IMG/VR virus record: IMGVR_UViG_3300032241_001788
Location: 1 to 32,261 of that record
Direction: 5' to 3' (one strand)
Origin: a virus
DNA length: 32,261 bases
A program made the position numbers and the translations under genes. The notes below the pieces were generated by a model. That model was not told the DNA's origin, searched no databases, and saw only the letters and a list, made by a program, of their open reading frames with translations. This document shows, in pieces, positions 719 to 27,192 of this stretch. Position 1 is the first letter of the stretch. Each line of letters starts with the position of its first letter.

Positions 719-730
719 TATATATTAAAT
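719..730 (-). promoter_or_regulatory. AT-rich promoter-like element TTTAATATATA
   Basis: Read on the minus strand, this element lies 18 nt upstream of the ATG at 700. The same string recurs before several other minus-strand genes in the window. It may be a phage promoter, but this is inferred only from recurrence and position. Confidence 0.3.
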
Positions 731-12123: not shown

Positions 12124-13218
12124 TTATAAATGACACGCTCCCCCTTCGCAACCAACAATATTAGGATCTTCTAATTCCATGTTTGCTTCGTCATTCTTGC
12201 TGATTACCTTTTCTGATATTATCATATCTTCTAATTTATCCGATTTGTAATCTTTACTATTTGCATAATAAATCTGCTTACCACCCCATTTATAGAAATT
12301 TAGTATATCTTTTGCCATTTCAGAAAGAGGTATGTTTCCATCTGAATAAACACGTTTATCGTAATAATGATTTACAGATATACCTTGATCAAACCATTTT
12401 TGTATAATAGATACAACCTTATTCATTGCAGTATTATCAAATTCATATGAAAATTGATACTTATTCTTTAATTTATTCATTTCTGGAACAACACATGGTA
12501 ATGGACCACCTGATTTAGATTTTTTAGTAGTAATTAACTTTCTCGGCGCTTCAATTCCGTTAGTAGCATTTGATACAACTGCTGATGATTCTGTTGGCAT
12601 TTGTGCAGTTAAAGTTGAGTTTCTTAATCCATCTCTTAAAATATCTGCTCTTAAATTTTCCCAATCTAATTCTAAATCTCTCTTAACTAATGTATCAACA
12701 TTTTTATTATAATGATCTATTGGAAGCAATCCTTTTGAATATTTAGTTCTGTCAAATAATTCACATGGACCAAATTCTTTTGCTAATTTATTAGAAGCTT
12801 TTAGTAAATAGTATTGCACATATTCAAATAATCTATCAATTTCAACCAATGATTTATCATTAGTATAAGTTAAATTATTCTTTGCTAACCAATAGGCAAA
12901 ATTAGTCACACCTACACCAATAGAACGTCTCTTTAACATTTTTTTAGCAGCTGGAACTGGATAATCTTGCATATCAATTACGAAATCAAGTATTCTAACT
13001 GCATATTCTGCCATTTCTTCTAATTCATCTAATGATTTAATTGCTCCTAAATTAAATGCTGCTAATACGCAAAGTGGAATTTCCCCAGGTTTATCACCAT
13101 AAACATATTCAAAATCTTGCTCTATATAAACATATTCATCACTTTCAACTTCGTCAGTATTACAAAATTGAACAATATTCTCGTATTGTGTTTCCACAAA
13201 TTTCATTTTTTCCATCAT
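12124..13218 (-). CDS. nrdA: Ribonucleotide reductase large subunit, C-terminal piece
   Basis: The protein has 364 residues and is the C-terminal part of a class Ia alpha subunit, separated from its N-terminal part by ~300 bp. GEIPLCVLAAFNLGAI (Cys at ~50) matches the E. coli strand with redox Cys462. NSTLTAQMPTESSAVVSNA is the substrate-phosphate-binding region. QIYYANSKD carries the radical-transfer tyrosine pair (E. coli Y730/Y731). CEGGACHL is the C-terminal cysteine pair that takes electrons from thioredoxin or glutaredoxin. The first ~40 residues (MMEKMKFVETQYENIVQFCN...) precede the recognisable core and may be insertion-derived or a native insert. It must pair with the 13521-14975 product to be active. 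Confidence 0.93.
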   Translation of the reverse strand: MMEKMKFVETQYENIVQFCNTDEVESDEYVYIEQDFEYVYGDKPGEIPLCVLAAFNLGAIKSLDELEEMAEYAVRILDFVIDMQDYPVPAAKKMLKRRSIGVGVTNFAYWLAKNNLTYTNDKSLVEIDRLFEYVQYYLLKASNKLAKEFGPCELFDRTKYSKGLLPIDHYNKNVDTLVKRDLELDWENLRADILRDGLRNSTLTAQMPTESSAVVSNATNGIEAPRKLITTKKSKSGGPLPCVVPEMNKLKNKYQFSYEFDNTAMNKVVSIIQKWFDQGISVNHYYDKRVYSDGNIPLSEMAKDILNFYKWGGKQIYYANSKDYKSDKLEDMIISEKVISKNDEANMELEDPNIVGCEGGACHL

Positions 13219-13520
13219 AATATTCTATTTCTTTTTTTAGGAATTCTTCGTAAGAAATTTCATTAAAACTCCATATTAATTTACCAAATCCACCTTTTAA
13301 TTTTTTTCTAATTACACCCAGAGGAATATCAGATTTAAATTGTATATTTGTTTCAATATGCTTTATTAAATAATAATTTCTGTTATGAACTTCTAATAAT
13401 AATTTATTTTTGTTATACCAATAAGGTATTCTTTTGTATATTTTTCTCCATTATATTCTATATAATCATTATATAAACTTAAATCAGAACAACTATTTAA
13501 ATAATCTATCTCTATGTGTA
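13219..13520 (-). pseudogene. Decayed insert between the two nrdA pieces
   Basis: This ~300-bp gap has no intact ORF. On the minus strand one frame reads EIDYLNSCSDLSLYNDYIEY then NGEKYTK and hits a stop. A second frame reads KIYKRIPYWYNKNKLLLEVH, later GGFGKLIWSFNEISYEEF, and runs into the next gene out of frame. There is no start codon suited to either. The pattern fits the remains of a homing endonuclease gene that once split nrdA; the family can no longer be told. A group I intron was considered, but no conserved core was recognised. Confidence 0.5.
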
Positions 13521-14975
13521 TTATTCGCCTTTAATTTTTATTTCTTTATTATTACCTAATAATTCTTTAAATTTATTAAAATCTTCTTTTTTAATTTTAA
13601 TTTTTCTTTTAACAATTTTACCATCATTTATATCATAAATAGGACTAGAGGGCAGTGTTATTTCTTGGCACAAATTACTCATATTTATTTTATCCAAAAA
13701 TGCTGAATGTGTATTGGCATTATCTATGTTTTGAATATAAATTCTACCATTTTCTAATCTTTCTTGTAAAAGAAGATTCATAACTTCACCAGCAGCAATA
13801 GTCGTTTTACTGATTGTAGGATCATTTTCGTATTTAACATATAATTCTTCAAACTTATCATTATCATAACCAAACCATTCATATAAATCTGGAACATCAT
13901 TTGCAGAAAATAAACTAATATTTTCTTTCTTAACAAATCGTGTATAGAATAATCTACATAATTGTATAGAATGATCCATTCTTCTTACACGTGCCAATTC
14001 ATTACCAGCATTATTCTTTAATACTAATATATCCATTATTTCTTTATGCCAGAAAGGATAGTGTGCAGTTGCAGCACCACCACGAATACCACCTTGTGAG
14101 CAAGATTTAACTGAAGATTCAAACATTTTTAAGAATGGGATAATGCCAGTGTGTATTTTTTCACCATTATTTACAGATGCACCGATTGCTCTTAAACGAA
14201 AGTTTAAACCAATACCTGCTCTATTAGAGATATATCTTAAAACTGCGTGATTAGAAGCTGCAATTGAATCCAAATCATCAGCAACATCAACTAAAACGCA
14301 AGAGGCGAATTGACGATTAGGAGTTCTAACACCAGCTAGAATTGGAGTTGGAAGAGATATTTTTTGTAAAGAAAGCATTTCATAACATTTTTTAACCTTA
14401 TCTAACCTATCTTCGCCAGAATAATTAGCAAATAAAGTCATGGCAATTAAAATATACATAAACTGCGGTGTTTCATAATGTTTGCCTGTTTTTCTATCTT
14501 GAACTAAATATTTATCCATTAATTGTTGAATACCAGAATAAGTTAAATCTTCATCTCTTTTATGTTTAATAAATTGTTCTATTTTATCCATTTCTCTTTC
14601 AGAATATTTAGTTAAAATAACCGAATCATATACATTTCTATCGACATTTTCTTTTATAAATGTTTTAAGCCTTGGAAAAGTACTGTAAGTATTAAATACT
14701 TCTTTCCTTAGAAGGAAGTTGAGTAATTTAGAAGCTACATATTGATAATTAGGTGTTTCTTCTGTAATCATATTTACAGCGGATTGAATAAGAACCTTAT
14801 GTATTTCGATAGATGTAATACCGTCATAAATTTGTAATTTGGCATTCATAGCAACGTCAGATGCCGAAACATTATTTATATCTTCCGTAGCCCATAAAAG
14901 AACTTTATTTATCTTTTCGTAGTCCAAAATCTCTCGCCTGTTGTCTCTCTTGACAACATAAATTTGTTTTGTCAT
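13521..14975 (-). CDS. nrdA: Ribonucleotide reductase large subunit, N-terminal piece
   Basis: The protein has 484 residues. It opens with an ATP-cone allosteric domain (VVKRDNRREILDYEKINKVL). RQFASCVLVDVADD carries Cys226, equal to E. coli C225 of the redox pair. SNRAGIGLNFRLRAIG and SCSQGGIRGGAATAHYPFWH are conserved core segments. MSNLCQEITLP carries the radical Cys436 with Asn434 and Glu438 (E. coli C439, N437, E441). After LPSSPIYDINDG the sequence leaves the family with a Lys-rich tail and stops. So the active-site Cys is on this piece and the partner redox Cys is on the other (12124-13218). This parallels the two-piece NrdA known from Aeromonas phage Aeh1. Confidence 0.93.
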   Translation of the reverse strand: MTKQIYVVKRDNRREILDYEKINKVLLWATEDINNVSASDVAMNAKLQIYDGITSIEIHKVLIQSAVNMITEETPNYQYVASKLLNFLLRKEVFNTYSTFPRLKTFIKENVDRNVYDSVILTKYSEREMDKIEQFIKHKRDEDLTYSGIQQLMDKYLVQDRKTGKHYETPQFMYILIAMTLFANYSGEDRLDKVKKCYEMLSLQKISLPTPILAGVRTPNRQFASCVLVDVADDLDSIAASNHAVLRYISNRAGIGLNFRLRAIGASVNNGEKIHTGIIPFLKMFESSVKSCSQGGIRGGAATAHYPFWHKEIMDILVLKNNAGNELARVRRMDHSIQLCRLFYTRFVKKENISLFSANDVPDLYEWFGYDNDKFEELYVKYENDPTISKTTIAAGEVMNLLLQERLENGRIYIQNIDNANTHSAFLDKINMSNLCQEITLPSSPIYDINDGKIVKRKIKIKKEDFNKFKELLGNNKEIKIKGE

Positions 14976-16092: not shown

Positions 16093-17256
16093 TTAAGCAT
16101 CTAAAAATTGGTCACCTTCTAATGTTAGAAATATTGGATTCAAATTAATTCTTATTTGTGATTTTAAAAAATCACCATCCCTTTGCTTTAACATTTTTAA
16201 TCTATATAAATTTTGCCTCTTCATTTCTTCATTACGGATGATTGCGAAGAAGCTATCAGCTGTTTCCGGTATAGCCTTTGATTCTGGCACAGATTCTAAC
16301 GATATATTAGTTGCATTCCAAGCATCTTTAGCAACTTGCAAAGCACTTATTACCGGCATTTTCCATTTAGAACCTAATGCTCTTAAACCTTCAGCAAGTA
16401 ATTTACCTTTTGTATAAAGAGTATCACCATTGCCATTTGTTTTTGGTGGCACCATAAGTGTTAAATAATCAACAATAAGTAAATCAATATTAATACCTTT
16501 TCTATCTTTTAATTTTTGTAAGAAAGCATCAAAATCATTTACATTTGCAGTTCCAGCCGCCCAAAATTTGGTATAAATTTTACCAACTTTTTTTTCAAAT
16601 AAATCAGATCCACCACCTGCAGATTTTTTTAATGAATCTATTTTTTTCTTCATAAATTCTGTATCCATCGATACAGTGTCATAGTCATTAATAGGAATTT
16701 TTAATCTCATAGAACCTAATCTTTTAAGCACTTTTCTTTCAGACATTTCAAGTGTTATATACAATACGTTATAACCTTGATTAGCTGAAGATACTGCTAA
16801 ATTCTGCATCCATAAAGAATTATGACTCAATATATCATTAGTATAATACTGTTTATTAGAACCTTCTGATAATTGTAGATCATACATATTGGATTTATTA
16901 CCAGTTTTATATAATTCCATAATCATTTCTGGGCCATCTTTTGTCATGATAAAATCTCCCAAATGAAGATCTTTGCAGAAAATTTCAGTTAAGTCACATT
17001 TTTTACTTAATAAATTCAAATTATCACATCTAAATAATATATGATTATCTGCACAGATTAATTCCTTTTCTTCAAAAGTAATTAATTTATACTCTTCATA
17101 TTCAATAGTTTTTCCGATGCCTTCTATGTTAATCCAACCGTTAGGGGTTAAAACTTCATACTCATCTACCTCATATGCTTCAATAAATTTATCATATAAC
17201 ACTTTATCATATTTGCCGTTTATTAAACTATCTGCTTCTATTATTTCAAATTCCAT
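16093..17256 (-). CDS. C-terminal split intein plus C-terminal half of gp41/DnaB-like replicative helicase
   Basis: The protein has 387 residues in two parts. Residues 1-146 are a long C-intein: EYEVLTPNGWINIEGIG (~32-48), a block-B-like CADNHILF (~68-75), a Gly/Asp turn (LHLGDFIMTKDG), and the ending NMYDLQLSEGSNKQYYTNDI then LSHN. The final His145-Asn146 followed by Ser147 is the normal C-splice junction. Residues 147-387 are helicase: SLWMQNLA finishes the Walker A motif, ITLEMS and LLIVDYLTLM (Walker B Asp263) are RecA-fold motifs. Ligation to the 18721-19449 product gives ~446 residues, near T4 gp41 (475). An endonuclease gene and an 83-aa ORF lie between the halves. Confidence 0.9.
   Translation of the reverse strand: MEFEIIEADSLINGKYDKVLYDKFIEAYEVDEYEVLTPNGWINIEGIGKTIEYEEYKLITFEEKELICADNHILFRCDNLNLLSKKCDLTEIFCKDLHLGDFIMTKDGPEMIMELYKTGNKSNMYDLQLSEGSNKQYYTNDILSHNSLWMQNLAVSSANQGYNVLYITLEMSERKVLKRLGSMRLKIPINDYDTVSMDTEFMKKKIDSLKKSAGGGSDLFEKKVGKIYTKFWAAGTANVNDFDAFLQKLKDRKGINIDLLIVDYLTLMVPPKTNGNGDTLYTKGKLLAEGLRALGSKWKMPVISALQVAKDAWNATNISLESVPESKAIPETADSFFAIIRNEEMKRQNLYRLKMLKQRDGDFLKSQIRINLNPIFLTLEGDQFLDA
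16819..17256 (-). mobile_element. C-terminal split intein segment (146 aa) of the replicative helicase
   Basis: This DNA encodes the C-intein fragment, ending with His-Asn before Ser+1. It is unusually long because the split lies early in the intein. It includes the block B region that normally belongs to the N-terminal part. Confidence 0.88.
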
Positions 17257-17275
17257 TTTTAATTATATTTTTTAT

Positions 17276-17527
17276 TTAAAATTCACGATAACCTTCTGTG
17301 TTATTATAAACTGGCTCTAATAATATTGATTTACCATTTTTCAATAATGCAGTTATAGTTAAACCTATATCTTCTGGATTATCACGATTAATAAACACAT
17401 CCTGTATTATACTTTTACGATAGATATTTCCTACAACTTTATTATTTTCTATTTCATAATAGTATGTATCAACCTCTTTGCCTATTAACCCATTCTCAAG
17501 TATTTTTTCTAAATTAATTCTCTTCAT
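17276..17527 (-). CDS. Hypothetical 83-aa protein between split-intein helicase halves
   Basis: Not recognised. An 83-residue, mostly beta-like protein (MKRINLEKILENGLIGKEVD; GLTITALLKNGKSILLEPVY). Its start overlaps the 3' end of the Vsr-like endonuclease gene (17514-18689) by 14 nt and its stop is 19 nt before the C-intein start, so it is coupled to both. It could be a passenger of the endonuclease insertion or part of the phage's original gene order. There is no intein motif in it. Confidence 0.6.
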   Translation of the reverse strand: MKRINLEKILENGLIGKEVDTYYYEIENNKVVGNIYRKSIIQDVFINRDNPEDIGLTITALLKNGKSILLEPVYNNTEGYREF

Positions 17528-18689
17528 TTTTTAAAAAATTTATACATTTTTTTATTGTTCCTTCTCTGTCTTTTTTATATTCGGATTCCCAAACAATTAA
17601 AACATCAAAACCTTTGTTTTTAGCAATATCCACTTTTATTTTATCTTTTTCCCAGAGACATTTTGCAGTAAATCCTTTTGATTTATTATATGGATGTGGC
17701 AAATCGTTATCATTATAAATCGCTGGATTACCATGATATTGATCTCCATTATATTCTATAATTTTTTTGTTTTTAATATCAGTAAAATCATATAACAAAA
17801 AAGATTTTTCTGTTTTTATAAAAAACTCCTTATTTTTAGTCCAGTAATAAATGTTATCTAATTCGACATCATTATAGTTTTTAACTAATTCATTAAATAA
17901 TGTCTGACTAATTTTAGAATATCCGCCTTTTATATTACCATTCTTTGATAGACTTTCTTGCCATCTTTCTTGTCTATCTATCCAAATATTTGTACCATCT
18001 TTTGTCCCATATTTTTCAATACAAATTTCAAGTGAAAATGTGGCTTGTCTTTTGGTTAAAAGTTTTAAACTTTCTTCTTCCGAATATCCTTTTTTTAAAT
18101 AATATTCTATATTAGTTGTATATTTATCTCTATACAATTCTGGATTAGATTTCTTCTTTATAGAAGTTTTCCTATGAATATCTTTCATAGACTCATAAGC
18201 TTTAATTTTAGCATCTTCTTCAGATAAACCTTTTTCTATCCAAAAAAGTTTGTTATTTCTACTTCTTTTTTTATCCCAATCTTTATCCTCAATTCTACTT
18301 TCTTGGAAAGTTTTCATCCTATTTTCCAATTGTCTTGAATTTTCTTCATCAAATCTTATTTCGGCTTCTTCTCTTGAAATCATTTCTCTATACATTATCC
18401 CTTCTATTGAATGAGACACAAAAGATTTTTTAAGACATTCTTGTGAAGTACAGAGATTTCTATAACCTTTCCCAATAGACATAAATAACCCCTCACTACC
18501 ACAGAAGAAACATGATTTATCTCTATGATTAATATACTTATCATAGTATTCTTTATGATCCATTTTAAGTGTTTTCGTGACATATATAGATATACCTTTA
18601 GTTGAATCAAATTTTCTATTATTTAAAGGGCATATAAAAGGTAATGGTATATCTTTATATCTCTTTGCTGCATTTATATTAGTTGACAT
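17514..18689 (-). CDS. Vsr-like (EDxHD-type) homing endonuclease inside the fractured helicase gene
   Basis: The protein has 391 residues. A Cys4 zinc-finger-like module (CFFC...C...C, residues 60, 63, 80, 85) lies near the N terminus. A Lys/Glu-rich helical middle follows with repeated short motifs (GLSEEDAKIKAYESM; GYSEEESLKLLTKRQ), likely DNA-binding spacers. The C-terminal nuclease domain has SKISQTLFNEL, then IIEYNGDQYHGNP (~310-322) and GFDVLIVWESEYKKD (~360-374), as in Vsr-related homing endonucleases. It is between the two halves of the split-intein helicase, the 'fractured gene' arrangement described for phage-like metagenomic sequences. It probably spreads the split-intein cassette. 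A TTTTAATATATA element lies 25 nt before its ATG. Confidence 0.85.
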   Translation of the reverse strand: MSTNINAAKRYKDIPLPFICPLNNRKFDSTKGISIYVTKTLKMDHKEYYDKYINHRDKSCFFCGSEGLFMSIGKGYRNLCTSQECLKKSFVSHSIEGIMYREMISREEAEIRFDEENSRQLENRMKTFQESRIEDKDWDKKRSRNNKLFWIEKGLSEEDAKIKAYESMKDIHRKTSIKKKSNPELYRDKYTTNIEYYLKKGYSEEESLKLLTKRQATFSLEICIEKYGTKDGTNIWIDRQERWQESLSKNGNIKGGYSKISQTLFNELVKNYNDVELDNIYYWTKNKEFFIKTEKSFLLYDFTDIKNKKIIEYNGDQYHGNPAIYNDNDLPHPYNKSKGFTAKCLWEKDKIKVDIAKNKGFDVLIVWESEYKKDREGTIKKCINFLKNEEN

Positions 18690-18714
18690 AATTTATTTTT
18701 CTTTTTATATACAT

Positions 18715-18726
18715 TATATATTAAAA
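18715..18726 (-). promoter_or_regulatory. AT-rich promoter-like element TTTTAATATATA
   Basis: It is read on the minus strand at the 3' end of the helicase N-terminal piece, 25 nt before the endonuclease ATG at 18689. The element overlaps the last intein codons, so the endonuclease may have its own transcript. Confidence 0.3.
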
Positions 18727-19449
18727 GTTGTTATGCCTCTGACTAATTTTGGAAAAGATTTTTTCACCGGTTGTATATATAATTTGTCCAGTTTTCTTAT
18801 TTCTCAATTCCAGTTTTGAATCACCAAAAAAACATTTTCCACTATTTGTCTCACCCATTAACATATTTAATGTTCCTATATCCCAGCCACCACCTAACAT
18901 ATGGTCAAGCGTTTCAAAACCGGATTTTATTTTAAATTTTGAAGAATCTTGAACGTGTGCTTCAACATCATCAAAATCCGAACCCATGCCATCTCCATCA
19001 TTAATAAAATTAACAGATGACATACTATCAACTATTTCTTTAATTTTTTGTGCAGTTTGATATGTAGTTTCAAAATCATTAATGACATCCAAGTTTCTTG
19101 TTTCTTCAACAATGTCAACAGTGCCCGCTTTTAAGCGGTTAGAAAGTATCCAAGCATTAAATCTTGGTATAATGAAATTAACTTCATCATATTCATCTAA
19201 ATTAACGGTAAGCATACTTTTAAGTATGTCCCTTGTAATAAGGCCTTCTTTATCTTCAAGACTTACCATTTCAAGTATTTGTTTTGGAGAAGGAATTTCT
19301 ATATCTCCATCAGTAAGCATGTAATTTCTAATTACATTATAAACGAATTGTATTTCGTTATTTTTGAAGAAATAAGGTTCAATTATGTGGAAGTATTTCT
19401 TATTTTGTAGTATATAGCCAAAAAAAATCTTTTCAATGCCGATAGTCAT
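18721..19449 (-). CDS. N-terminal half of gp41/DnaB-like replicative helicase plus short N-terminal split intein
   Basis: The protein has 242 residues. Residues 1-205 are the N-terminal part of a T4 gp41/DnaB-type 5'-3' replicative helicase: an N-terminal helical domain and the linker, then FKIKSGFETLDHMLGGGWD and NMLMGETNSGK, an incomplete Walker A motif. At residue 206 the protein switches to an intein start, CFFGDSKLELRNKKTGQII, running only 37 residues before the stop. Cys206 is the splice nucleophile. Joining to the C-half rebuilds GETNSGK-S, so the intein interrupts the P-loop. Neither half alone can bind ATP properly, so trans-splicing should be essential. Confidence 0.92.
   Translation of the reverse strand: MTIGIEKIFFGYILQNKKYFHIIEPYFFKNNEIQFVYNVIRNYMLTDGDIEIPSPKQILEMVSLEDKEGLITRDILKSMLTVNLDEYDEVNFIIPRFNAWILSNRLKAGTVDIVEETRNLDVINDFETTYQTAQKIKEIVDSMSSVNFINDGDGMGSDFDDVEAHVQDSSKFKIKSGFETLDHMLGGGWDIGTLNMLMGETNSGKCFFGDSKLELRNKKTGQIIYTTGEKIFSKISQRHNNF
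18724..18834 (-). mobile_element. Short N-terminal split intein segment (37 aa) of the replicative helicase
   Basis: The segment begins with Cys (CFFGDSKLELRNKK) directly after the P-loop Gly-Lys. Typical N-inteins are ~90-110 residues. At 37 residues this belongs to the atypically split class, as in AceL-TerL and VidaL. Confidence 0.88.
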
Positions 19450-19502
19450 AAATTAATATAATAATTTTTTATTATTAATTATATTAATTCAAATTTTTTA
19501 GT

Positions 19503-20090
19503 TTATTTGTTAAACTCATTTATCGTCATGACATTTGAAGATTTAGGCATATTTTTATTTACTACAGCCCCTTTATCTTTTAAGTAATCTGTTATAATCT
19601 CCAATTCTGTTATAGGAACTTTATATTTTTCTACAAAAGTTAAAACGGATTCTAAAGAATTAGTTAATTTAAATATGGATTTAAAGCAATTTGATAAATT
19701 TTTAACTATATTATTTCCAATTCCAAGTAATTTTAATTCCTCTAAAACTGATTTAATCTCTGTTTCAAAATCCGCTTTTTTAATTTTATTATCTATAAGG
19801 AATTTACTATTTTCTAATTCAGAAGCGGAAAAAGCAGCCACACAAAGTAAAATAATAGTTTTTTGGTCGTCACCTATATTTAAGTTTGAATTTTTAACTA
19901 ACTCTTCGGTAATTTTTTCTAATAAACCTAATTTTTCTTCGTTTTGATTAATAAGGATTTTATGAATTTTTAATTTATCTAAAAAGGTATTTTTTGGTAA
20001 AGCAAATTTAGTTTTTTCTAAAACCTGATTTGAAACCAAGTTTAAAAATTCATCGGCTAATTGAAGTTGTTTATAATTTAAAACTTTCAT
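19503..20090 (-). CDS. Hypothetical helical protein (195 aa)
   Basis: Not recognised. A Leu/Lys/Asn-rich, nearly all-helical protein (MKVLNYKQLQLADEFLNLVS; LLCVAAFSASELENSKFLI; LLGIGNNIVKNLSNC). No catalytic motif, signal or clear membrane segment is visible. The C terminus is polar and perhaps disordered. It lies 53 nt upstream of the helicase N-terminal piece and is preceded by a terminator and a TTTTAATATATA element at 20095-20106. It may be a replication accessory or structural protein; the sequence does not decide. Confidence 0.65.
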   Translation of the reverse strand: MKVLNYKQLQLADEFLNLVSNQVLEKTKFALPKNTFLDKLKIHKILINQNEEKLGLLEKITEELVKNSNLNIGDDQKTIILLCVAAFSASELENSKFLIDNKIKKADFETEIKSVLEELKLLGIGNNIVKNLSNCFKSIFKLTNSLESVLTFVEKYKVPITELEIITDYLKDKGAVVNKNMPKSSNVMTINEFNK

Positions 20091-20094
20091 TTAT

Positions 20095-20106
20095 TATATA
20101 TTAAAA
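20095..20106 (-). promoter_or_regulatory. AT-rich promoter-like element TTTTAATATATA, 4 nt before ATG
   Basis: The minus-strand leader TTTTTAATATATAATAAATG follows directly after the terminator hairpin of the preceding gene, so a new transcript probably begins here. Four nt separate it from the ATG at 20090. Confidence 0.4.
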
Positions 20107-20130
20107 AACATGCTAAAAATTAGCATGTTT
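20103..20130 (-). terminator. Rho-independent terminator of the 20129-20638 gene
   Basis: Stem AAACATGCTA (20106-20115) pairs with TAGCATGTTT (20121-20130) around a 5-nt loop, with T-rich sequence following on the minus strand. It overlaps the last bases of the gene's stop codon region. Confidence 0.75.
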
Positions 20131-20638
20131 AAAATTTTTCATCCACAACTTTTTTAATTGTTTCAAATAAATACTCTTTGTCTATGTAATCCTTATAGAT
20201 TACAAAAATTTGTTTATCATTTTCCACTTTTGTATAAAATTCGTAATTTTTTTCTTTAGCAAAATCTTTACTAAAAGATTCATACAATTTTTTTCTGCCT
20301 CTTGATGAATCTAAAGCGCCAAAAACTACAGCATCAGGAGTTTTTAAAGTATGTAAATAATATAATCCTTCCTTTACGGTAGGTAAAACTTTATATTTAT
20401 CGCTTTCAAGATTAGTCATATTTGGGCTCATTTCTTTATCTTTATAAAAATAAAAATCATATTTCCATATATTATTTCCCTTTTCAAGACAATCTATTTG
20501 ATATATATTTGTTCCAACTTGAAACAATCCAATAAGATGGTTTGGTTTATCAACCCAGTTTATTTTAACTGGATTTTGAAATGCCTCAAGAAGCATTTCA
20601 AAATATTCATCCATTTTTTTAATAAAATTAAATTTCAT
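20129..20638 (-). CDS. Hypothetical protein (169 aa)
   Basis: Not assigned. A mixed alpha/beta protein: an N-terminal helix (MKFNFIKKMDEYFEMLLEAF), strands (NHLIGLFQVGTNIYQIDCLE; WKYDFYFYKDKEMS), a helix with TVKEGLYYLHTLKTPDAVVF, then GALDSSRGRKKLYESF and a C-terminal helix-strand. The PDAVVFGALDSSRGRKKLY stretch looks like a conserved core of small phage proteins, but I cannot name the family. It ends in its own terminator. An endonuclease fragment (20643-20888) lies 4 nt upstream. Confidence 0.65.
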   Translation of the reverse strand: MKFNFIKKMDEYFEMLLEAFQNPVKINWVDKPNHLIGLFQVGTNIYQIDCLEKGNNIWKYDFYFYKDKEMSPNMTNLESDKYKVLPTVKEGLYYLHTLKTPDAVVFGALDSSRGRKKLYESFSKDFAKEKNYEFYTKVENDKQIFVIYKDYIDKEYLFETIKKVVDEKF

Positions 20639-20642
20639 ATTT

Positions 20643-20933
20643 TTATATATTAATTAATATATTATTGATTTCTTCAAATTTAAAATATGGTATTCTTATT
20701 AAGAATATATTATTTTTAATACAAAATTCATCTTTTATATTATCATTTATTTTTGTCTCTTTAAAAGATTTGTCACTAAATATATTTCGAAAATGTTGTT
20801 CGCCATCATATTCTATACATATATTTTTTTCTGGTAAATAAAAATCAAAAGGCAATTTATTTATATTTATACATCCATCAAATTTCATTTGAGGAATATA
20901 TTTTATATTATTTTTTAAGATATGGTGTTCCTC
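20643..20933 (-). pseudogene. Truncated Vsr/EDxHD-like endonuclease domain (homing endonuclease remnant)
   Basis: From ATG 20888 an 81-residue ORF encodes the core of a Vsr-like/DUF559-like nuclease: LPFDFYLPEKNICIEYDGEQ then HF, and later NDNIKDEFCIKNNIFLIRIP. The frame is open further upstream to 20933 with fitting sequence (EEHHILKNNIKYIPQMKFDG), where a TGA blocks it. Full-length homing endonucleases have a long N-terminal DNA-binding part that is missing here. It lies directly behind the C-terminal helicase piece, so it is probably a remnant of an endonuclease insertion. The active-site Glu-Tyr-Asp...Gln-His is still present, so residual nuclease activity cannot be excluded. Confidence 0.7.
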
Positions 20934-20940
20934 TCACATA

Positions 20941-22206
20941 CTATTTTATAGTTTTAATTGATTCCAAAACCCAGTTAGGGAAAAAATGGCTAGAATATTT
21001 CAATATATCTCCGAAACATGAATCAATTATTATTGTATCAGCATAATCTGTGTGAGAACGAATTGAACGTCCGCATGCCTGGATTATCCCCGCAATAGTC
21101 CTATATGCGTACCACTCTGGATAAGTTTTTTGCCTCATTTTATTTTTCTGCGAAGCTAACGAAGGATAAGGTATTTTTGCTATAACCTGAAAACGACTTT
21201 TTTCATGATCAAAACTTACTCCGGTTGATACAGAAGGACTTACAATAACGGTTGGTTTATCACTAGTAAAATGATGTCTTAACATTTCTTCTTTATTTGC
21301 CGAAGTATGAAATACTAATCTTGAATCTTTGACAGAATCTTCTATCCATTTAGACAATTCAAATGAATTAGTATGGATAATTCCTTTAACATCTGAATAT
21401 TTTTTTAACACCTTTGTAAAAAATGGCACATAACTTTTAAATGTTTCCTCTTTTTTAGTATAAGACATCTTACCAAGTGGCATATAATATATTTTCCTAT
21501 TTTCTAATGGAAAAGGAGATGGTGCAGAATAATAAACAGACCTTTCTACATCTATTCCATTTAAAGTAGCAAATAAAGTCTTATCTAAAATAGTTCCAGA
21601 CATTAGAATAACCATATCATAGTTAGACCAAACATATTTATCTAAATAATCTTTGGCCCAAATAGGTTCTAAAGATAATTCATTTATTTTTGTTTTCTCG
21701 TTATATTGCGATTCTACAACCCAATTAGAAGGATTAGCCTCATATTCCTTTAAGAATACTGCTATTTTAGTAGAATACTGTCGTAAATCAGTTACAAGTT
21801 GCATGAATTTAACATCATTAGATTCTAAATCTAGAATAGCATTAATTTTCATATCTCTCATATCTTTTTTACCAGAAAAAGAATTACCTCTTCCAGAGGA
21901 TAATGCGGCTTCAATTTCAGCCATAGTATTAACTATTTCATCTAAAAAGAAACGTAAAAATTCAATATAAGTTTCAATATTTACAACATCTTTTAATGCC
22001 TTTATTATTTGATTTTCATTAGCAAATTTAAACTTTTTTACTACAGTTTCGGTTATTTTAATAGAAATAAAATCCGACATTACATCATCAAATTCATGAC
22101 AATTGCTCACACAGTGATTATTTGCAAAATAATTGTGATTATCTTGTATATGAAGATTATAAACATCTTCCTTATAATCTATTTTCTTTATGCTTTTAAT
22201 CTTCAT
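20941..22206 (-). CDS. C-terminal split intein plus C-terminal part of DinG/XPD-like helicase
   Basis: The protein has 421 residues. Residues 1-35 are a standard-length C-intein (KIKSIKKIDYKEDVYNLHIQ then DNHNYFANNHCVSN), ending Asn35 before Cys36. The penultimate residue is Ser instead of the usual His. Residues 36-421 continue the helicase: CHEFDD completes the DEAH-type box, VILMSGTIL is motif III-like, IVSPSVSTGVSFDHE is motif V, and QACGRSIRSHTDYADTIIID is motif VI of the DinG/Rad3 (XPD) family. Ligation to the 23029-23874 product gives ~553 residues. This is a superfamily 2 helicase, probably 5'-3', for replication or repair. Its ATG overlaps the stop of the endonuclease gene by 4 nt. 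Confidence 0.9.
   Translation of the reverse strand: MKIKSIKKIDYKEDVYNLHIQDNHNYFANNHCVSNCHEFDDVMSDFISIKITETVVKKFKFANENQIIKALKDVVNIETYIEFLRFFLDEIVNTMAEIEAALSSGRGNSFSGKKDMRDMKINAILDLESNDVKFMQLVTDLRQYSTKIAVFLKEYEANPSNWVVESQYNEKTKINELSLEPIWAKDYLDKYVWSNYDMVILMSGTILDKTLFATLNGIDVERSVYYSAPSPFPLENRKIYYMPLGKMSYTKKEETFKSYVPFFTKVLKKYSDVKGIIHTNSFELSKWIEDSVKDSRLVFHTSANKEEMLRHHFTSDKPTVIVSPSVSTGVSFDHEKSRFQVIAKIPYPSLASQKNKMRQKTYPEWYAYRTIAGIIQACGRSIRSHTDYADTIIIDSCFGDILKYSSHFFPNWVLESIKTIK
22102..22206 (-). mobile_element. C-terminal split intein segment (35 aa) of the DinG-like helicase
   Basis: It encodes the 35-residue C-intein ending CVSN before Cys+1. Blocks F (DVYNLHIQDNHNYFANN) and G are present. The penultimate Ser replaces the common His. 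Confidence 0.88.
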
Positions 22207-23084
22207 ATAAATTGTTTTAAATTTTTACTCATTTTTTCTTCACAAGGTTGTCCTTTGATTAAATTTTCATCATAATTTTTTCTAAACCAATTATCATTTA
22301 TAATAATTAATTTATAACCATTATTTTTCGCCCATTTTCTCGCATATCTAATTTTTGCTTTATTTTTAGGTGTATTTATTGTAGAATTTGGTTTTATTTC
22401 ATAAATAATTTTATTATCATAATCGACAAAATCGACAATATAATTATGCTCTTCTTTATTAATTTTATAAGTAATTATTAATTTTTCATAGAAAATATTT
22501 TGATTATATAATTGAAAATAAGCATCCCATGTAGATCTAGTTTTTATTTTTACTATGTCATTATTTCTATAAAATTCTATATCACACCTTGATTTAGCCC
22601 AACTATTAGTTATATTTGGTATAAATTTACCTTCCTTTATATTTTGTTTCATTTTTAATGAATTTTTTAAACACATAGATTTAAAGGATTTCTCTGTCAT
22701 CCTATGACAGGTGTTGCTTTCACCACTCTGTCTATGTGAAATAGATTCATAATTACAAGATGTGTTATCGCAAAATTTATATATACCATACTTTTTCTCA
22801 ACATTAATAAAATCTATTCTATTAGGAAATAAACTACCGATTTTTCTGCTGCGATTACATTTTGAATTTTTACACTTTTTATCCCAATTTTCTGTAAGAA
22901 ATAAAAAACATTCTTCCAAAGTTTGGAATTGTAAATTACAAACTTTGTTTAATAAAACATTTAAAGCATTTACTTTATCATTTTCTTCCTTTTTATATAT
23001 AAATTTTACTTTATTTTTTGCTATGAAATCATATATTATATTCTTTTCCTCTATTGTCAAATTCATGTGATTCAATCTTTTCAT
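22203..23084 (-). CDS. PD-(D/E)XK-type (TnsA-like) homing endonuclease inside the fractured helicase gene
   Basis: The protein has 293 residues. A Cys cluster (C71, C76, C105, C110) suggests a zinc finger, followed by a linker (CHRMTEKSFKSMCLKNSLKM). The C-terminal domain (~180-268) reads TRSTWDAYFQLYN, FYEKLIITYK, HNYIVDFVDYDNKIIYEIKP and KIRYARKWAKNNGYKLIIIN. Asp218 and E229-x-K231 form a PD-(D/E)XK site, as in TnsA-like nucleases. It lies between the intein halves: its start overlaps the N-intein gene by 56 nt and its stop overlaps the C-intein start. The second Met (23066) is an alternative start. It is of a different nuclease family from the one in the other fractured helicase. Confidence 0.82.
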   Translation of the reverse strand: MKRLNHMNLTIEEKNIIYDFIAKNKVKFIYKKEENDKVNALNVLLNKVCNLQFQTLEECFLFLTENWDKKCKNSKCNRSRKIGSLFPNRIDFINVEKKYGIYKFCDNTSCNYESISHRQSGESNTCHRMTEKSFKSMCLKNSLKMKQNIKEGKFIPNITNSWAKSRCDIEFYRNNDIVKIKTRSTWDAYFQLYNQNIFYEKLIITYKINKEEHNYIVDFVDYDNKIIYEIKPNSTINTPKNKAKIRYARKWAKNNGYKLIIINDNWFRKNYDENLIKGQPCEEKMSKNLKQFI

Positions 23085-23874
23085 TTATATATAAAATCTC
23101 GTCATCTTCCTTCAAATCTTCGGCTTTTTTCCATGTACCGTCAATCAATTTAACTTTATGGTTACCAGTAATTTTTATAATATCACCATTTTCCATTTCA
23201 ATTTCATACATTTGAACGCCTTTATTTAAATTATGATGTAATTTTACTACAGGTTTAACTTCTAATTTGTTAGTTTCTTCATTTATAGTTATTACTAATT
23301 CACCTTCTACTATATCTTTTATTTTCTTTTTAGAACCATCTGACATAGTTATTTCTGTATCAGGATGCAGACATTCATCTACAATCAATAATCTCGATTC
23401 TCTTTCTTCAAACATTTTTGAACCATAGATGGCGTTTATCAAATAAAGATGAAAGTTAGTTAAATTAACTTCCGATGTCATGTATTGTATTTTAGCGGAA
23501 TCATAAGGACAAAACTCACATTTAGTTTTATTTAACCTATTAAATTCTTTACCTTTTTCACAAGAGCAGGCATACTGCACACACTCATAATTATCTTTAC
23601 CTCTTAATGATTTGATTTCATCGTAGGTTCCTTCATATTGATCTTGTAGTAATTTACCAGCAGTAATTATATCAACTTTAGCATCTTTAAAAACATGTGT
23701 AGTAATATAGTCAGCCGCCATAACTGCAAAGTGACTTTTGCCGATACCGACAGCCATATTAAACATGAAAAACTTATTATCAGGTTTTTTCTGTATAACG
23801 GTTTTAAGATATTCAAGTGCTTTTTGCTGTTCGACACGAGGTGTAAATTTTATTAAATCTTTTCTTATAGACAT
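23029..23874 (-). CDS. N-terminal part of DinG/XPD-like helicase plus N-terminal split intein
   Basis: The protein has 281 residues. Residues 1-167 are helicase: TPRVEQQKALEYL (Q-motif-like), NMAVGIGKSHFA (Walker A), a Cys-rich segment (C98, C103, C105, C119, C122) and RLLIVDE, the start of the DEAH box. The Cys cluster resembles the Fe-S insert of DinG/XPD helicases. Residues 168-281 are a 114-residue N-intein: CLHPDTEITMSDGSKKKIKD, then block B GDIIKITGNHKVKLIDG (TxxH pattern). Splicing joins VDE to CHEFDD and makes a DECH box. Both halves are needed for an ATPase site. Confidence 0.92.
   Translation of the reverse strand: MSIRKDLIKFTPRVEQQKALEYLKTVIQKKPDNKFFMFNMAVGIGKSHFAVMAADYITTHVFKDAKVDIITAGKLLQDQYEGTYDEIKSLRGKDNYECVQYACSCEKGKEFNRLNKTKCEFCPYDSAKIQYMTSEVNLTNFHLYLINAIYGSKMFEERESRLLIVDECLHPDTEITMSDGSKKKIKDIVEGELVITINEETNKLEVKPVVKLHHNLNKGVQMYEIEMENGDIIKITGNHKVKLIDGTWKKAEDLKEDDEILYINEKIESHEFDNRGKEYNI
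23032..23373 (-). mobile_element. N-terminal split intein segment (114 aa) of the DinG-like helicase
   Basis: It begins at Cys168 (CLHPDTEITM) within the DEAH box and includes intein blocks A and B (TGNHKV). The last ~15 residues (SHEFDNRGKEYNI) run past the canonical N-intein end and overlap the endonuclease start. Confidence 0.9.
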
Positions 23875-23904
23875 ACTAATTATATTCTTAAATTAAGTTA
23901 TGTT

Positions 23905-24531
23905 TTAATCTTCTAAAATCTTATCAATACTCATATCTCGCATCATAGATTTTACACATGAATTAATTATATTCTGGTAATATTTATTTGGATAATACTT
24001 AAATTCCTTATCAAAATCTTGACCATTGAAATTCCTCCTGAATAATACAAGATTAATAGTTTTTTTATTTCCTAATTTATCAGGTTTAGTGGTTATTTCA
24101 AATGATAATTCTGTTAATTCAATAGGAGAATTATACCAACGACCTACTATATCTACAAAATCGTTATTAGTATTTATCTTATCGTAAATACTTAAAGCAA
24201 ATTTTTTTCTCAAAGCCTTAAAAATTTTACGATTATTATTTTCTTTTATGGTGCATAATTCTAAATTAGATACATTATTATTGAATGTATTACCATCTAT
24301 ATGATTTATTTTATATTTTACATCAAAATTGTCAATAAAATATTCAGCTACTAATCTATATAATAGGTACTTCTTACCTTTACCATTAGATAAATTAATT
24401 CTTATATATCCTATTTTATTGTCATTTAAACTGAGAATACAATTATTTTTTATATTTTTAACAAAACCATATGATGATATCATATAGTTTTCATAAGGAT
24501 ATTTCATATTTACCCATATTTCTTTTTCCAT
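23905..24531 (-). CDS. HNH homing endonuclease (NUMOD4-like) after the polymerase fragment
   Basis: The protein has 208 residues. The N-terminal NUMOD4-like part is EIWVNMKYPYENYMISSYGF, then KNIKNNCILSLNDNKIGYIR. The HNH domain follows as LLYRLVAEYFIDN and INHIDGNTFNNNVSNLELCT (~75-95), with catalytic His77 and the following Asn ligands. The C-terminal half does not match a known domain. It lies between the truncated DNA polymerase gene (53 nt downstream of its stop) and the DinG-like helicase. It is a natural candidate for the agent that split the polymerase gene. Confidence 0.88.
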   Translation of the reverse strand: MEKEIWVNMKYPYENYMISSYGFVKNIKNNCILSLNDNKIGYIRINLSNGKGKKYLLYRLVAEYFIDNFDVKYKINHIDGNTFNNNVSNLELCTIKENNNRKIFKALRKKFALSIYDKINTNNDFVDIVGRWYNSPIELTELSFEITTKPDKLGNKKTINLVLFRRNFNGQDFDKEFKYYPNKYYQNIINSCVKSMMRDMSIDKILED

Positions 24532-24584
24532 AATATGTATATTAAAATGAAAATTTGTGTTTGTTACAAAAGTATATCATTCTC

Positions 24585-26108
24585 TTATATCATATTTTTT
24601 ATTTCATCTTCAAGTTTTTTTATTTCATCTTGAATTTTTTTATATTCCTCTTTTTTTGACATCATGACTTTCTTTGCTTTTTTTCTATCAGCATAAACAT
24701 CTTCAAGCATTTTTAAAGTCGGCGACATACGTTTCTTAAATACGACACCATTTACACAAATTACATGTTCATTTTTATTAATAACCGCCCCATTAGTGCA
24801 TACTGAAGGATTTTCTGGATTTTGAAGTCCAACAAAATTTTCAGGAGCAATAAAGAACTGACGTTGGGTTGTTGGGTACAAGCTCGAAAAATCGAAGCAA
24901 ACAACCCACTGCTGCATACCAGTTACAGGATCCTTAACCCAACCACCGGCAAGCCCGGCTTCACCATCATCAAATGATGCTCTATCTTCATTTTTAAAGA
25001 TTACAATATTTTCCATATCTCTAAATCTATCTCTCAAAACTCCTTCAGTAATAGCAAGAGAGGCTAATGCTCCTTTTGCAGAATTAATTACATCTTTAAT
25101 TTGTATTTTAGATAAAGAAGAAATCGCAAATACTATTGAAACATAATTTTTAGATTCATGTATTTTTTGAACCAAAACAGAGTCAACGCAGTTGTAATAC
25201 ATGAATTTTTCAAAATCTTCATCATATAATTTAGATAAACTACCACTATATTTAATTTTATTAACACCAACTAATTTACTAGACACATAATCTAATGAAG
25301 ATGATTCTTTAACTTTAATTGAAGTATCGCATATTTCATATAGCTGCATATAGTCAAATATCATCCTATGTGCTGGCAATTCATATTTAGTCATAAATAT
25401 ATTATTTAATCTTTTAGTAGGAGAAGAAACATTAGGATCAATTGTTAATTGCTCACCATTAACTATTTTATTAATTTTTCTAGCACGATTTACTAAATAC
25501 ATCCAGTCATAACCTATAAAGTTCCAACCTGTAATACATGTCATTTTTGGGACCATATCATAAAAAAAAGTTTTAAGCATATCAAATTCATCATCAAATT
25601 TTATATACTTAAATTTATAATGACTATTATAATTTTCGAAATACTCATTAGTGCCATCAATTATTCTTTTCTGCATATCTTGTGACATTTCTTTTAATCC
25701 CATTAGAATGATCTTATCAGCATAAACAACTGATATAGAAAGTATTTGTCCATTTGGGTCTTCTGGTTGAGAATAACCACCAGTAAGGGGATCCAGTGCA
25801 GTTTCTATATCGACAAAATATATTTCAGGTTCGTTATATTCAAATATTTCTTTTTTCTCATTTTCCGGTAAAGCATCTAAAAATTCATAAATTGCATATC
25901 TATCTGGATAGCCAGCAGAAACTTTTTTAACAGGTTTTCCTTCCCAAGAAGTTAAAGTTGGGTGTTTTTCTGGATCAGAAGCATCGCAGTTTTGATACTT
26001 CTGTGGATTAGGCCAGTCATATGTTTTTAATTTAATCTTACCCGTCTTATCAACAAAAGATAAAATTAATTTTTTAGTATGACTTAAATATTGACTTTCA
26101 ATTAACAT
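24585..26108 (-). CDS. T4-like family B DNA polymerase, N-terminal half (exonuclease and motif A only)
   Basis: The protein has 507 residues. The 3'-5' exonuclease motifs are all present: Exo I FVDIET (D100, E102), Exo II NFIGYD (N196, D201), Exo III YNCVDS (Y305, D309). Polymerase motif A is CFDFSSLYP (D406, SLYP 409-412). The protein stops soon after (YADRKKAKKVMMSKKEEY then Lys/Glu-rich), where the fingers would begin. Motif B (KxxxNSxYG) and motif C (DTD) are absent. T4 gp43 has ~898 residues. No C-half is found in the window. So either the other half is encoded elsewhere, as in some split phage polymerases, or the gene is broken. An HNH endonuclease lies just downstream. Conserved exonuclease and motif A residues argue for a functional subunit. 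Confidence 0.93.
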   Translation of the reverse strand: MLIESQYLSHTKKLILSFVDKTGKIKLKTYDWPNPQKYQNCDASDPEKHPTLTSWEGKPVKKVSAGYPDRYAIYEFLDALPENEKKEIFEYNEPEIYFVDIETALDPLTGGYSQPEDPNGQILSISVVYADKIILMGLKEMSQDMQKRIIDGTNEYFENYNSHYKFKYIKFDDEFDMLKTFFYDMVPKMTCITGWNFIGYDWMYLVNRARKINKIVNGEQLTIDPNVSSPTKRLNNIFMTKYELPAHRMIFDYMQLYEICDTSIKVKESSSLDYVSSKLVGVNKIKYSGSLSKLYDEDFEKFMYYNCVDSVLVQKIHESKNYVSIVFAISSLSKIQIKDVINSAKGALASLAITEGVLRDRFRDMENIVIFKNEDRASFDDGEAGLAGGWVKDPVTGMQQWVVCFDFSSLYPTTQRQFFIAPENFVGLQNPENPSVCTNGAVINKNEHVICVNGVVFKKRMSPTLKMLEDVYADRKKAKKVMMSKKEEYKKIQDEIKKLEDEIKNMI

Positions 26109-26228: not shown

Positions 26229-27059
26229 TTAAACTAATTCTAATTTTTCTTGCTTCAATAATTCATATGCTCTACTTAACCTGGTCATGCCTATACCACC
26301 ACCTGAACGCTCAAAGAAATTATATGAAAGAAAATCTTCTAATTCTTTTTCAACTCTTTCTTTTCCGAATAATTGAAATAATTTCGATGCATACTCACCA
26401 TCCATTATTGTATAGAACATTTCTCTCATTTCTTCTGGATTACAAGACCTCTCGGCTGAACCGATAGTTTCTTGTCCGTATAAAATGACATCTATTTTGT
26501 TAAATGTTCCATCACCTCTGGAAGCCATGTTCCAGAAGGGGTTCGTGCGCAAGGGAAATTCCTGTAATGAGATACATTTTCCAAGTTCATTTTTCATTCT
26601 TGTTTCATGTTCATCTTCTAAAATTTTAACACCACCATATTCTTCACATATTTCATCATATTTGACTTCAACTGGCGAACCAAAGCCAAGATAATTTAAT
26701 AATTGATTTTCAAGTTTTTTTAATTCTTCAAATCCACCTTTAAGTTCAAATTCAAACATAGGAAATATTTTTGCATGGCGACCTGAAATTGGATTTTTTT
26801 CATCTCTATAAGATGTAGTTAAACAGAAACATCCTGGCCATTCTGGATTCTTTAATAGTTCTTCTTCAAGATCCATTTGTCCTGTTTGTTTAAGTGGCCA
26901 TACTTGTCCGTCTAACTGGAAAGTCATAACAGAATGTGGATTTTCACACGCTGCTAAAATTGAAGTTCTTGACTGTGTTGGAACTTCCACGAAACCTTTT
27001 TCCAAAAAAAAGCTTCTCATTTTTTGAATGAGTTCGTTGTAAATTTTTGTGTTTTGCAT
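26229..27059 (-). CDS. Class II aminoacyl-tRNA synthetase-like, AsnA/AsnRS-related enzyme
   Basis: The protein has 276 residues from the ATG at 27059. The frame is open to a TTG at 27098 (13 more residues, MAVSKNSSKKKFL), so the start is uncertain. Class II motif 2 is CLTTSYRDE (~79-87) with HAKIFPMFEFE. Motif 3 is GGGIGMTRLSRA (~253-264). GQETIGSAERS resembles the AspRS/AsnRS family. There is no anticodon-binding domain. This layout matches the archaeal-type asparagine synthetase A related to AsnRS (AS-AR), which makes Asn from Asp and ammonia, or a stand-alone synthetase paralogue that modifies something other than tRNA. It is followed by a strong terminator. Confidence 0.82.
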   Translation of the reverse strand: MQNTKIYNELIQKMRSFFLEKGFVEVPTQSRTSILAACENPHSVMTFQLDGQVWPLKQTGQMDLEEELLKNPEWPGCFCLTTSYRDEKNPISGRHAKIFPMFEFELKGGFEELKKLENQLLNYLGFGSPVEVKYDEICEEYGGVKILEDEHETRMKNELGKCISLQEFPLRTNPFWNMASRGDGTFNKIDVILYGQETIGSAERSCNPEEMREMFYTIMDGEYASKLFQLFGKERVEKELEDFLSYNFFERSGGGIGMTRLSRAYELLKQEKLELV

Positions 27060-27192
27060 TAGGAATTTTTTTTTTGAGCTGTTTTTTGAAACAGCCAAAT
27101 AAGGAGTGATTAATTTTTCAATCTTTATTATATATTACATTTTTAAATAGAAGTTTAAATAAAATTAGCGAAAATTCGATAATTTTATTATT

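What the first reader, a model, noticed from the sequence alone, without database searches (positions are those of the whole stretch)
16093..26108. Cluster of fractured replication genes: two split-intein helicases and a half polymerase, with nrdA broken next door
Within ~16 kb (12-26 kb), four genes for DNA replication or dNTP supply are broken at catalytic landmarks: gp41-like helicase (P-loop), DinG/XPD-like helicase (DEAH box), NrdA (active-site region, 12124-14975) and family B polymerase (between motifs A and B). Three have an adjacent endonuclease of three different families (Vsr-like, PD-(D/E)XK, HNH), and the fourth a decayed insert. Fractured genes with split inteins are known from environmental phage sequences, but this density and mix are striking. 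The phage may depend on several protein-assembly events to replicate.
Basis: partly seen in the sequence, partly recalled or inferred. Interest (0 to 1): 0.88.

Follow-up and report, generated by a model that had tools for sequence, protein, structure and literature searches.

The report
Mobile split inteins fracture phage helicases
In a fragment of a giant bacterial virus, two DNA-unwinding enzymes are each cut into two genes by a mobile element that should stitch the two protein halves back together; near-identical viruses without the element show that it really jumps, whereas the 'half' polymerase next door is simply how this virus group always builds its polymerase.

Summary
The sequence observation holds. 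The window is a 32-kb linear fragment related to the 635-642-kb huge phages LR745206/LR756502. gp41 is split at the P-loop (GK|S) by an atypically split intein (IntN 37 aa, IntC 146 aa) around a Vsr/EDxHD-like endonuclease. A DinG/XPD-like helicase is split at DE|CH by a canonical split intein (114/35 aa) around a TnsA-like PD-(D/E)XK endonuclease. nrdA is split by a GIY-YIG endonuclease gene that has since lost about 650 bp.

The shared story is only partly right. Orthologous loci show the intein cassettes are mobile: 11 of 53 gp41 and 7 of 41 DinG alleles carry them, needing at least 9 and 7 changes on the trees. One gp41 occupied/empty pair is 98.5-99.6% identical outside the insert. The sister contig (80-86% DNA identity) lacks all three insertions. 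The 'half polymerase' is not a break: every relative's N-half stops at the fingers tip, and where found the C-half is a separate gene 11 kb to 282 kb away. The HNH gene is incidental.

These are new members of a known kind. The DE|CH cassette has a relative in cultured Salmonella phage S16 (UvsW), with an empty-site sister phage, so homing is testable. Interest 0.5.

The parts
18835..19449 (-). gp41-like (DnaB-type) replicative helicase, N-extein, 205 aa, ends at P-loop GETNSGK
   Evidence: phrog_19; contiguous orthologues in L045, L048, L002, L003 and others
18724..18834 (-). gp41 intein IntN, 37 aa (CFFGDSKL...HNNF)
   Evidence: Begins with Cys1; IntN of 35-39 aa at the same place in 9 other distinct carriers
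17514..18689 (-). Endonuclease ORF inside the gp41 cassette (391 aa), Vsr/EDxHD-like C-terminal domain
   Evidence: Profile hits Vsr weakly, E 0.036; model matches 1vsr prob 0.98 and I-Bth0305I 3r3p prob 0.97, E about 0.2; orthologues in 5 other carriers, invariant E312, D316, H319
17276..17527 (-). Extra 83-aa ORF between the endonuclease and IntC, not seen in other carriers
   Evidence: No tblastn hit in any fetched locus
16819..17256 (-). gp41 intein IntC, 146 aa, ends SHN
   Evidence: Profile with IntN hits TerL-derived CatC intein 6dsl E 8e-7; 38-40% identity to TerL P-loop inteins
16093..16818 (-). gp41-like helicase C-extein, starts SLWMQ
   Evidence: PF03796 E 4e-14; 90% to contiguous L045
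23374..23874 (-). DinG/XPD-like helicase N-extein, 167 aa, ends LIVDE
   Evidence: PF04851, phrog_2488; contiguous in L045, L048, L002, L003
23032..23373 (-). DinG intein IntN, 114 aa
   Evidence: PF14890 E 6e-12; 6 other carriers
22203..23084 (-). Endonuclease ORF in the DinG cassette (293 aa), PD-(D/E)XK, TnsA-like; start overlaps IntN, stop overlaps the IntC start (ATGA)
   Evidence: PF08722 E 1e-5; model best hit TnsA 1t0f prob 0.99, E 0.02; 29% to S16 gp114.1, 47% to Lak-B4; DNA
22102..22206 (-). DinG intein IntC, 35 aa, ends CVSN
   Evidence: PF14890 C-end E 1e-4; 83-97% identical in 6 other carriers
20941..22101 (-). DinG/XPD-like helicase C-extein, starts CHEFDD
   Evidence: PF13307 E 1e-14
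13521..14975 (-). NrdA N-piece (484 aa; NLCQEI active-site Cys) with an insert-derived tail
   Evidence: phrog_84/phrog_3987; same piece 94% in L050
13219..13520 (-). Remnant of a GIY-YIG homing endonuclease gene, catalytic part deleted (about 650 bp)
   Evidence: L050 carries a 323-aa ORF here, GIY-YIG E 6e-4
12124..13218 (-). NrdA C-piece (364 aa; GEIPLC ... CEGGACHL)
   Evidence: PF02867 E 1e-61; contiguous nrdA in L045
24585..26108 (-). Family B polymerase N-half (507 aa; exo + motif A + first fingers helix): normal N-subunit of this phage group
   Evidence: PF03104, PF00136; RB69 alignment ends at residue about 495; same C-terminus in all relatives
23905..24531 (-). NUMOD4-HNH endonuclease, free-standing, not tied to the polymerase split
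   Evidence: PF13392, PF07463; no equivalent between pol and DinG in relatives

Best explanation
Three different things lie side by side in the replication/dNTP cluster of a huge phage. (1) gp41 and a DinG/XPD-like helicase are each fractured by a mobile cassette IntN-endonuclease-IntC, inserted exactly in Walker A (GK|S) and Walker B (DE|CH). The two precursors are made from adjacent ORFs, the intein halves dock, and trans-splicing joins the exteins into an intact helicase with no scar. The internal endonuclease cuts empty alleles in mixed infections, and repair copies in the whole cassette (homing). (2) nrdA was invaded by a GIY-YIG endonuclease gene without a splicing element; the endonuclease has since been deleted and the two pieces most likely assemble non-covalently, as in phage Aeh1. 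(3) The polymerase is a clade-wide two-subunit enzyme split at the tip of the fingers, whose C-subunit is encoded elsewhere. Shown here: anatomy, precise insertion, empty sites, conserved splicing residues, phylogenetic scatter. Inferred: trans-splicing, endonuclease activity, homing direction, NrdA and polymerase assembly.
For: Precise junctions restoring GETNSGKSLW and VDECHEFDD. Cys1, block-B His, terminal Asn and +1 Ser/Cys invariant in 10 gp41 and 7 DinG carriers. Contiguous empty alleles in 42 of 53 gp41 and 34 of 41 DinG loci; scatter needs at least 9 and 7 changes. L044 versus L074: 99.6% and 98.5% identical flanks, differing by the 1.8-kb cassette. L095 versus L098: 85% identity over the 1.6 kb upstream of the DinG site, 98.9% beyond, the mark expected of co-conversion. 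Closest sister L045 (80-86% DNA) lacks both inteins and the nrdA insert. L050 retains the full nrdA endonuclease. Polymerase N-end identical in position in all relatives; separate C-half in 8 genomes.
Against: No splicing or cleavage assay. IntN of gp41 is poorly conserved (18-43% identity, pN/pS about 1 at saturated distances), so its fitness is not proven from sequence. The DinG intein has Ser instead of the usual penultimate His (VSN|C). Some carriers have lost the endonuclease, so mobility is not universal now. L044/L074 shows no co-conversion tract, so that pair could also be a precise loss. The structural matches of both endonuclease models are low-confidence (E 0.02-0.2).
Confidence: 0.88

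Rival explanations
1. One common wave of fracturing: all four genes, polymerase included, were broken by endonuclease insertion and the phage must reassemble four enzymes as a result.
For: All four genes are discontinuous within 14 kb and have endonuclease genes or remnants nearby.
Against: The polymerase N-half ends at the same residue in every relative, without HNH neighbour or intein, and its C-half is a separate gene in all complete relatives. Lak and several Bacteroidota jumbo phages also have two separate pieces. The nrdA insert has no Hint sequence.
Confidence: 0.04
2. Degenerate or pseudogene state: the helicase halves are dead and the phage uses other helicases or host ones.
For: A decayed insert is present in nrdA; IntN of gp41 is highly variable.
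Against: No frameshift or stop in exteins or IntC; extein pN/pS 0.28-0.52 and IntC 0.23-0.35 between the window and other carriers; splicing residues invariant in all carriers.
Confidence: 0.04
3. The halves work as non-covalent split enzymes and the intein parts are vestigial.
For: Non-covalent split NrdA and gp43 are documented for phages Aeh1 and 25 (PMC2988022).
Against: The breaks fall inside Walker A and the DExH box, where leftover 114-146-aa intein parts should block ATP binding; the intein catalytic residues are conserved.
Confidence: 0.03
4. The nrdA insert is (or was) a group I intron rather than a free endonuclease insertion.
For: GIY-YIG endonucleases often sit in group I introns.
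Against: No intron family found in the window or in the intact L050 insert; both NrdA pieces carry in-frame tails, ending in a stop or starting at ATG, that are conserved 93-94% between window and L050.
Confidence: 0.08

Closest known systems
Fractured genes with split inteins and EDxHD/Vsr-like homing endonucleases (Dassa et al. 2009, doi 10.1093/nar/gkp095; seen here only as a reference in PMC13014065)
   Same: Two gene halves ending and starting with intein halves, free-standing endonuclease ORF between, replication genes as hosts.
   Different: gp41 intein here is atypically split and sits in the P-loop; a DinG-type helicase is a host; orthologous empty alleles, including a 99%-identical one, are shown.
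Atypically split TerL inteins (AceL TerL, GOS TerL; consensus CatC, PDB 6dsl) and Kuttervirus TerL intein
   Same: Short IntN and long IntC; profile match E 8e-7; Kuttervirus TerL intein sits at P-loop GK|T and is 38-40% identical.
   Different: Host is the gp41 helicase; IntN is 37 aa, at the top of the reported 15-37 aa range (PMC13014065).
Salmonella phage S16 UvsW (gp114 - gp114.1 - gp115) and Prevotella phage Lak-B4 UvsW
   Same: Canonical split intein at DE|CH with a related TnsA-like endonuclease (29% and 47% identity).
   Different: Host gene is UvsW, not DinG; S16 intein ends AHN|C, the window's ends VSN|C.
Phage Aeh1 split nrdA (mobE insertion)
   Same: Endonuclease gene inserted in nrdA; two pieces without intein; in Aeh1 the enzyme is fully functional (PMC2988022).
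   Different: Endonuclease was GIY-YIG and is deleted in the window.
Aeromonas phage 25/44RR split gene 43 (gp43A/gp43B)
   Same: Family B polymerase in two intein-free polypeptides; phage 25 pieces co-purify with activity (PMC2988022).
   Different: Here the two genes are 11 to 282 kb apart and the split is fixed throughout the group.

Membership tests
Split intein (gp41) | Nucleophile Cys/Ser at position 1, terminal Asn, +1 Cys/Ser/Thr | tested here: met
   C1 and N183 invariant in 10 carriers, +1 Ser
Split intein (gp41) | Block B and block F/G intein motifs | tested here: met
   Invariant CADxH; YDLQL...YYTNDILSHN; profile hits inteins 6dsl, 6qaz
Split intein (gp41) | Removal restores an intact conserved host protein | tested here: met
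   GETNSGK|SLWMQ equals contiguous orthologues
Split intein (DinG) | Hint/intein profile match on both halves, Cys1, terminal Asn, +1 Cys | tested here: met
   PF14890 E 6e-12 on IntN and 1e-4 on IntC; C1, N, +1 C in 7 carriers
Split intein (DinG) | Penultimate His (usual, but not essential for all inteins; own knowledge) | tested here: not met
   Ser in all 7 carriers (VSN|C)
Split intein (both) | Trans-splicing activity | not testable with these tools
   Needs expression of the two halves
Fractured gene / homing cassette | Endonuclease ORF between the halves | tested here: met
   Both cassettes in the window; lost in some carriers (L035, L037, L041, L042 for gp41; L096 for DinG)
Fractured gene / homing cassette | Occupied and empty alleles in close relatives | tested here: met
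   L044/L074, L095/L098, S16/CGG4-1
EDxHD/Vsr-like homing endonuclease (gp41 cassette) | Vsr fold with E-D-H catalytic pattern | tested here: inconclusive
   Invariant E312, D316, H319; Foldseek 1vsr prob 0.98, 3r3p prob 0.97, but E about 0.2 and low-confidence model
PD-(D/E)XK, TnsA-like endonuclease (DinG cassette) | D...E-x-K core in a TnsA-like fold | tested here: inconclusive
   Invariant D218/D221, E229, K231; TnsA 1t0f prob 0.99, E 0.02; Pfam just under cut-off
Aeh1-like split NrdA | Endonuclease gene interrupts nrdA, no intein or intron, both pieces intact | tested here: met
Aeh1-like split NrdA | Pieces form an active enzyme | not testable with these tools
   Needs purification and a reductase assay
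Two-subunit family B polymerase | Separate C-half with motifs B and C encoded in the genome | tested here: inconclusive
   Present in complete relatives; not on this fragment, which is incomplete

The most novel reading that the evidence does not exclude
Two split-intein families follow an ATPase motif rather than a gene: one moves among P-loop GK|S/T sites (TerL and gp41), the other among DE|CH boxes (UvsW and DinG), each with its own endonuclease family. In huge phages they co-occupy the replication cluster so that helicase supply depends on two trans-splicing events, possibly used as a timing control.
Probability: 0.2. Interest if true: 0.75.

Novelty: new member of a known kind. Interest (0 to 1): 0.5.

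Why it matters
Fractured split-intein genes have been described as gene arrangements and used as protein-ligation tools. Here their movement can be read: occupied and empty alleles of the same gene in near-identical phages, a likely co-conversion tract, and endonuclease loss with the split kept. The same element type in a cultured phage (S16) with an empty-site sister (CGG4-1) makes homing of a split-intein cassette directly testable. The carriers also supply ten natural gp41 inteins and seven DinG inteins as possible new ligation tools. The polymerase result corrects a likely misreading for this whole phage group.

Tried and rejected
Group I intron in the window or in the nrdA insert: none found. 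Polymerase C-half on the fragment: none, single PF00136 match. HNH as the cause of the polymerase split: rejected because absent in relatives. Intein in Vibrio phage D506 helicase suggested by the tblastn span: rejected, the gene is contiguous DECH. VidaL as the closest relative of the gp41 intein: weak (6vgv E 0.22) versus TerL/CatC E 8e-7. Solved-structure search with the single gp41-cassette endonuclease gave only a spurious spliceosome hit; the profile and model searches were more useful. gp41/DinG intein co-occurrence (5/5/1/30, Fisher p 0.0018) ignores relatedness and is not leaned on. Dassa et al. 2009 full text is not held. Papers describing split inteins in this huge-phage group or in S16 UvsW were not found in the held library; that is not proof of absence.
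Full report
What the window is. It is a 32,261-bp linear viral record with no other sequence held for it. Its closest named relatives are the unannotated huge phages LR745206.1 (634,780 bp) and LR756502.1 (642,428 bp), then the 735-kb LR756501/503, LR756504 and LR756500. Gene order in the polymerase-DinG-gp41-nrd stretch is conserved with them.

gp41. The N-half (18721-19449) ends GETNSGK + CFFGD...HNNF; the C-half (16093-17256) begins with 146 aa ending TNDILSHN + SLWMQ. Joining the exteins gives an intact Walker A motif. Among 53 distinct orthologues 11 carry the intein and 42 are contiguous with no gap at exactly this point. IntN is 35-39 aa and IntC about 146 aa in nearly all carriers. This is an atypical split; natural ones are reported with IntN of 15-37 aa (PMC13014065). 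The intein profile matches the TerL-derived consensus CatC (6dsl, E 8e-7) and gp41-1. In public phages the best matches are TerL inteins, which in Kuttervirus also sit in the P-loop, QARQSGK|C...HN|TT. IntC is under purifying constraint (pN/pS 0.23-0.35 for the pairs printed). IntN is so divergent (18-43%) that only Cys1 and a few hydrophobic positions are kept.

DinG/XPD-like helicase. The N-half ends LIVDE + CLHPDTEI... (114 aa, PF14890 E 6e-12); the C-half starts with 35 aa ending HCVSN + CHEFDD. This is a canonical split at the DExH box. Seven of 41 orthologues carry it, all with +1 Cys; empty alleles have Ala, Ser or Cys there. Intein identity exceeds extein identity for the window against every other carrier and in most, though not all, of the remaining pairs (window versus L104: 86% intein, 65% extein). 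This points to horizontal movement. The endonuclease ORF starts inside IntN and its stop overlaps the IntC start codon (ATGA), suggesting translational coupling.

Mobility. On the gp41 tree the carriers need at least 9 gains or losses, on the DinG tree at least 7. L044 and L074 are 99.6% (upstream) and 98.5% (downstream) identical, yet L044 has the 1.8-kb IntN-endonuclease-IntC cassette and L074 is empty. L095 and L098 differ by the DinG cassette. The 1.6 kb upstream of the insertion is only 85% identical while the next 1.8 kb is 98.9% identical, as co-conversion would leave; other recombination could also do so. In four gp41 carriers and one DinG carrier the endonuclease is gone but the intein halves remain separate genes, so the split state appears hard to reverse.

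The same DE|CH element in culturable phages. Salmonella phage S16 has UvsW split as gp114, gp114.1, gp115: NDE|CFDGDT...AHN|CHLATGKS, with gp114.1 homologous to the window's DinG endonuclease (29%, E 4e-12). Lak-B4 has the same in its UvsW, endonuclease fragment 47% identical. Salmonella phage CGG4-1 has the contiguous gene (NDECHLATGKS) with 95.3-95.5% flanks, a cultured occupied/empty pair.

nrdA. The two pieces are separated by 305 bp. In L048-L050 (94% and 92% identical pieces) the same place holds a 953-bp gap with a 323-aa ORF, GIY-YIG E 6e-4. The window keeps only its 5' edge and 3' third. The closest contig L045 has contiguous nrdA (PTSPIHDINSEEGEIALC). There is no intein or intron signature. 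By E. coli numbering (own knowledge) Cys225 and Cys439 lie on the N-piece and Cys462 on the C-piece, so activity needs both. Aeh1 sets the precedent (PMC2988022). Other relatives (L063, L075) carry a true split intein in nrdA at NL|C with a GIY-YIG ORF between.

Polymerase. The N-half aligns to RB69 polymerase up to residue about 495, in the first fingers helix (helix assignment from own knowledge of RB69). It stops at the same place in all relatives examined. Complete or long relatives encode the C-half, which begins with the second fingers helix and motif B (KLVLNGSYG), as a separate gene far away: LR745206, 131 kb versus 234 kb; LR756502, 121 kb versus 255 kb; LR756501, 710 kb versus 90 kb; LR756504, 539 kb versus 257 kb; LR756500, 11 kb apart; and three long IMG/VR contigs. 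No intein is present at the break. This is the normal state of the group, shared at least with Lak phages, and it explains why no C-half is found here.

Endonucleases. The gp41-cassette protein matches Vsr and I-Bth0305I by structure with high Foldseek probability but poor E-values. The DinG-cassette protein matches TnsA. The two do not align significantly with each other by sequence. The HNH gene next to the polymerase is free-standing and specific to the window among fetched loci at that place.

Verdict. The striking density is a mixture of two mobile split-intein cassettes, one old endonuclease insertion and one ancestral two-gene polymerase. Dependence on trans-splicing and subunit assembly is a sound inference but is untested.

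Noticed in passing
L063:5350-6700 and L075:5000-6500: nrdA in these relatives is fractured by a canonical split intein at the active-site Cys (NL|C) with a GIY-YIG ORF between the halves.
   Followed up: partly
window 20643-20888; also L002:29045-29284, L007:12564-12773, L048:11375-11584: A short ORF with a Vsr-like EYDGEQHF motif recurs at many different places in this phage group, perhaps a minimal free-standing endonuclease.
   Followed up: no
L048:11375-11795 (also L049, L050): A second, partial copy of the gp41 3' end (55 codons, 89% to the window's) follows one of those short ORFs, suggesting insertion with gene-end duplication.
   Followed up: no
L014 (LR756500, about 252 kb): The polymerase C-half of LR756500 appears interrupted by an intein at motif C (YIDTDS); that genome has eight intein-profile matches.
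   Followed up: no
window 17276-17527: An 83-aa ORF lies inside the gp41 cassette and has no counterpart in other carriers.
   Followed up: no
DinG IntC, window 22102-22206: Penultimate residue of the DinG intein is Ser in all seven carriers, His in the related S16 UvsW intein.
   Followed up: partly
window 725-1462: A further endonuclease-like gene (GIY-YIG-like start, three NUMOD3 motifs) outside the cluster.
   Followed up: partly
window 26229-27098, 7768-8493, 29941-31293: A core-only class II (D/K/N) tRNA-synthetase-like gene, an N6/N4 DNA methylase and an Eco57I-type methylase.
   Followed up: partly
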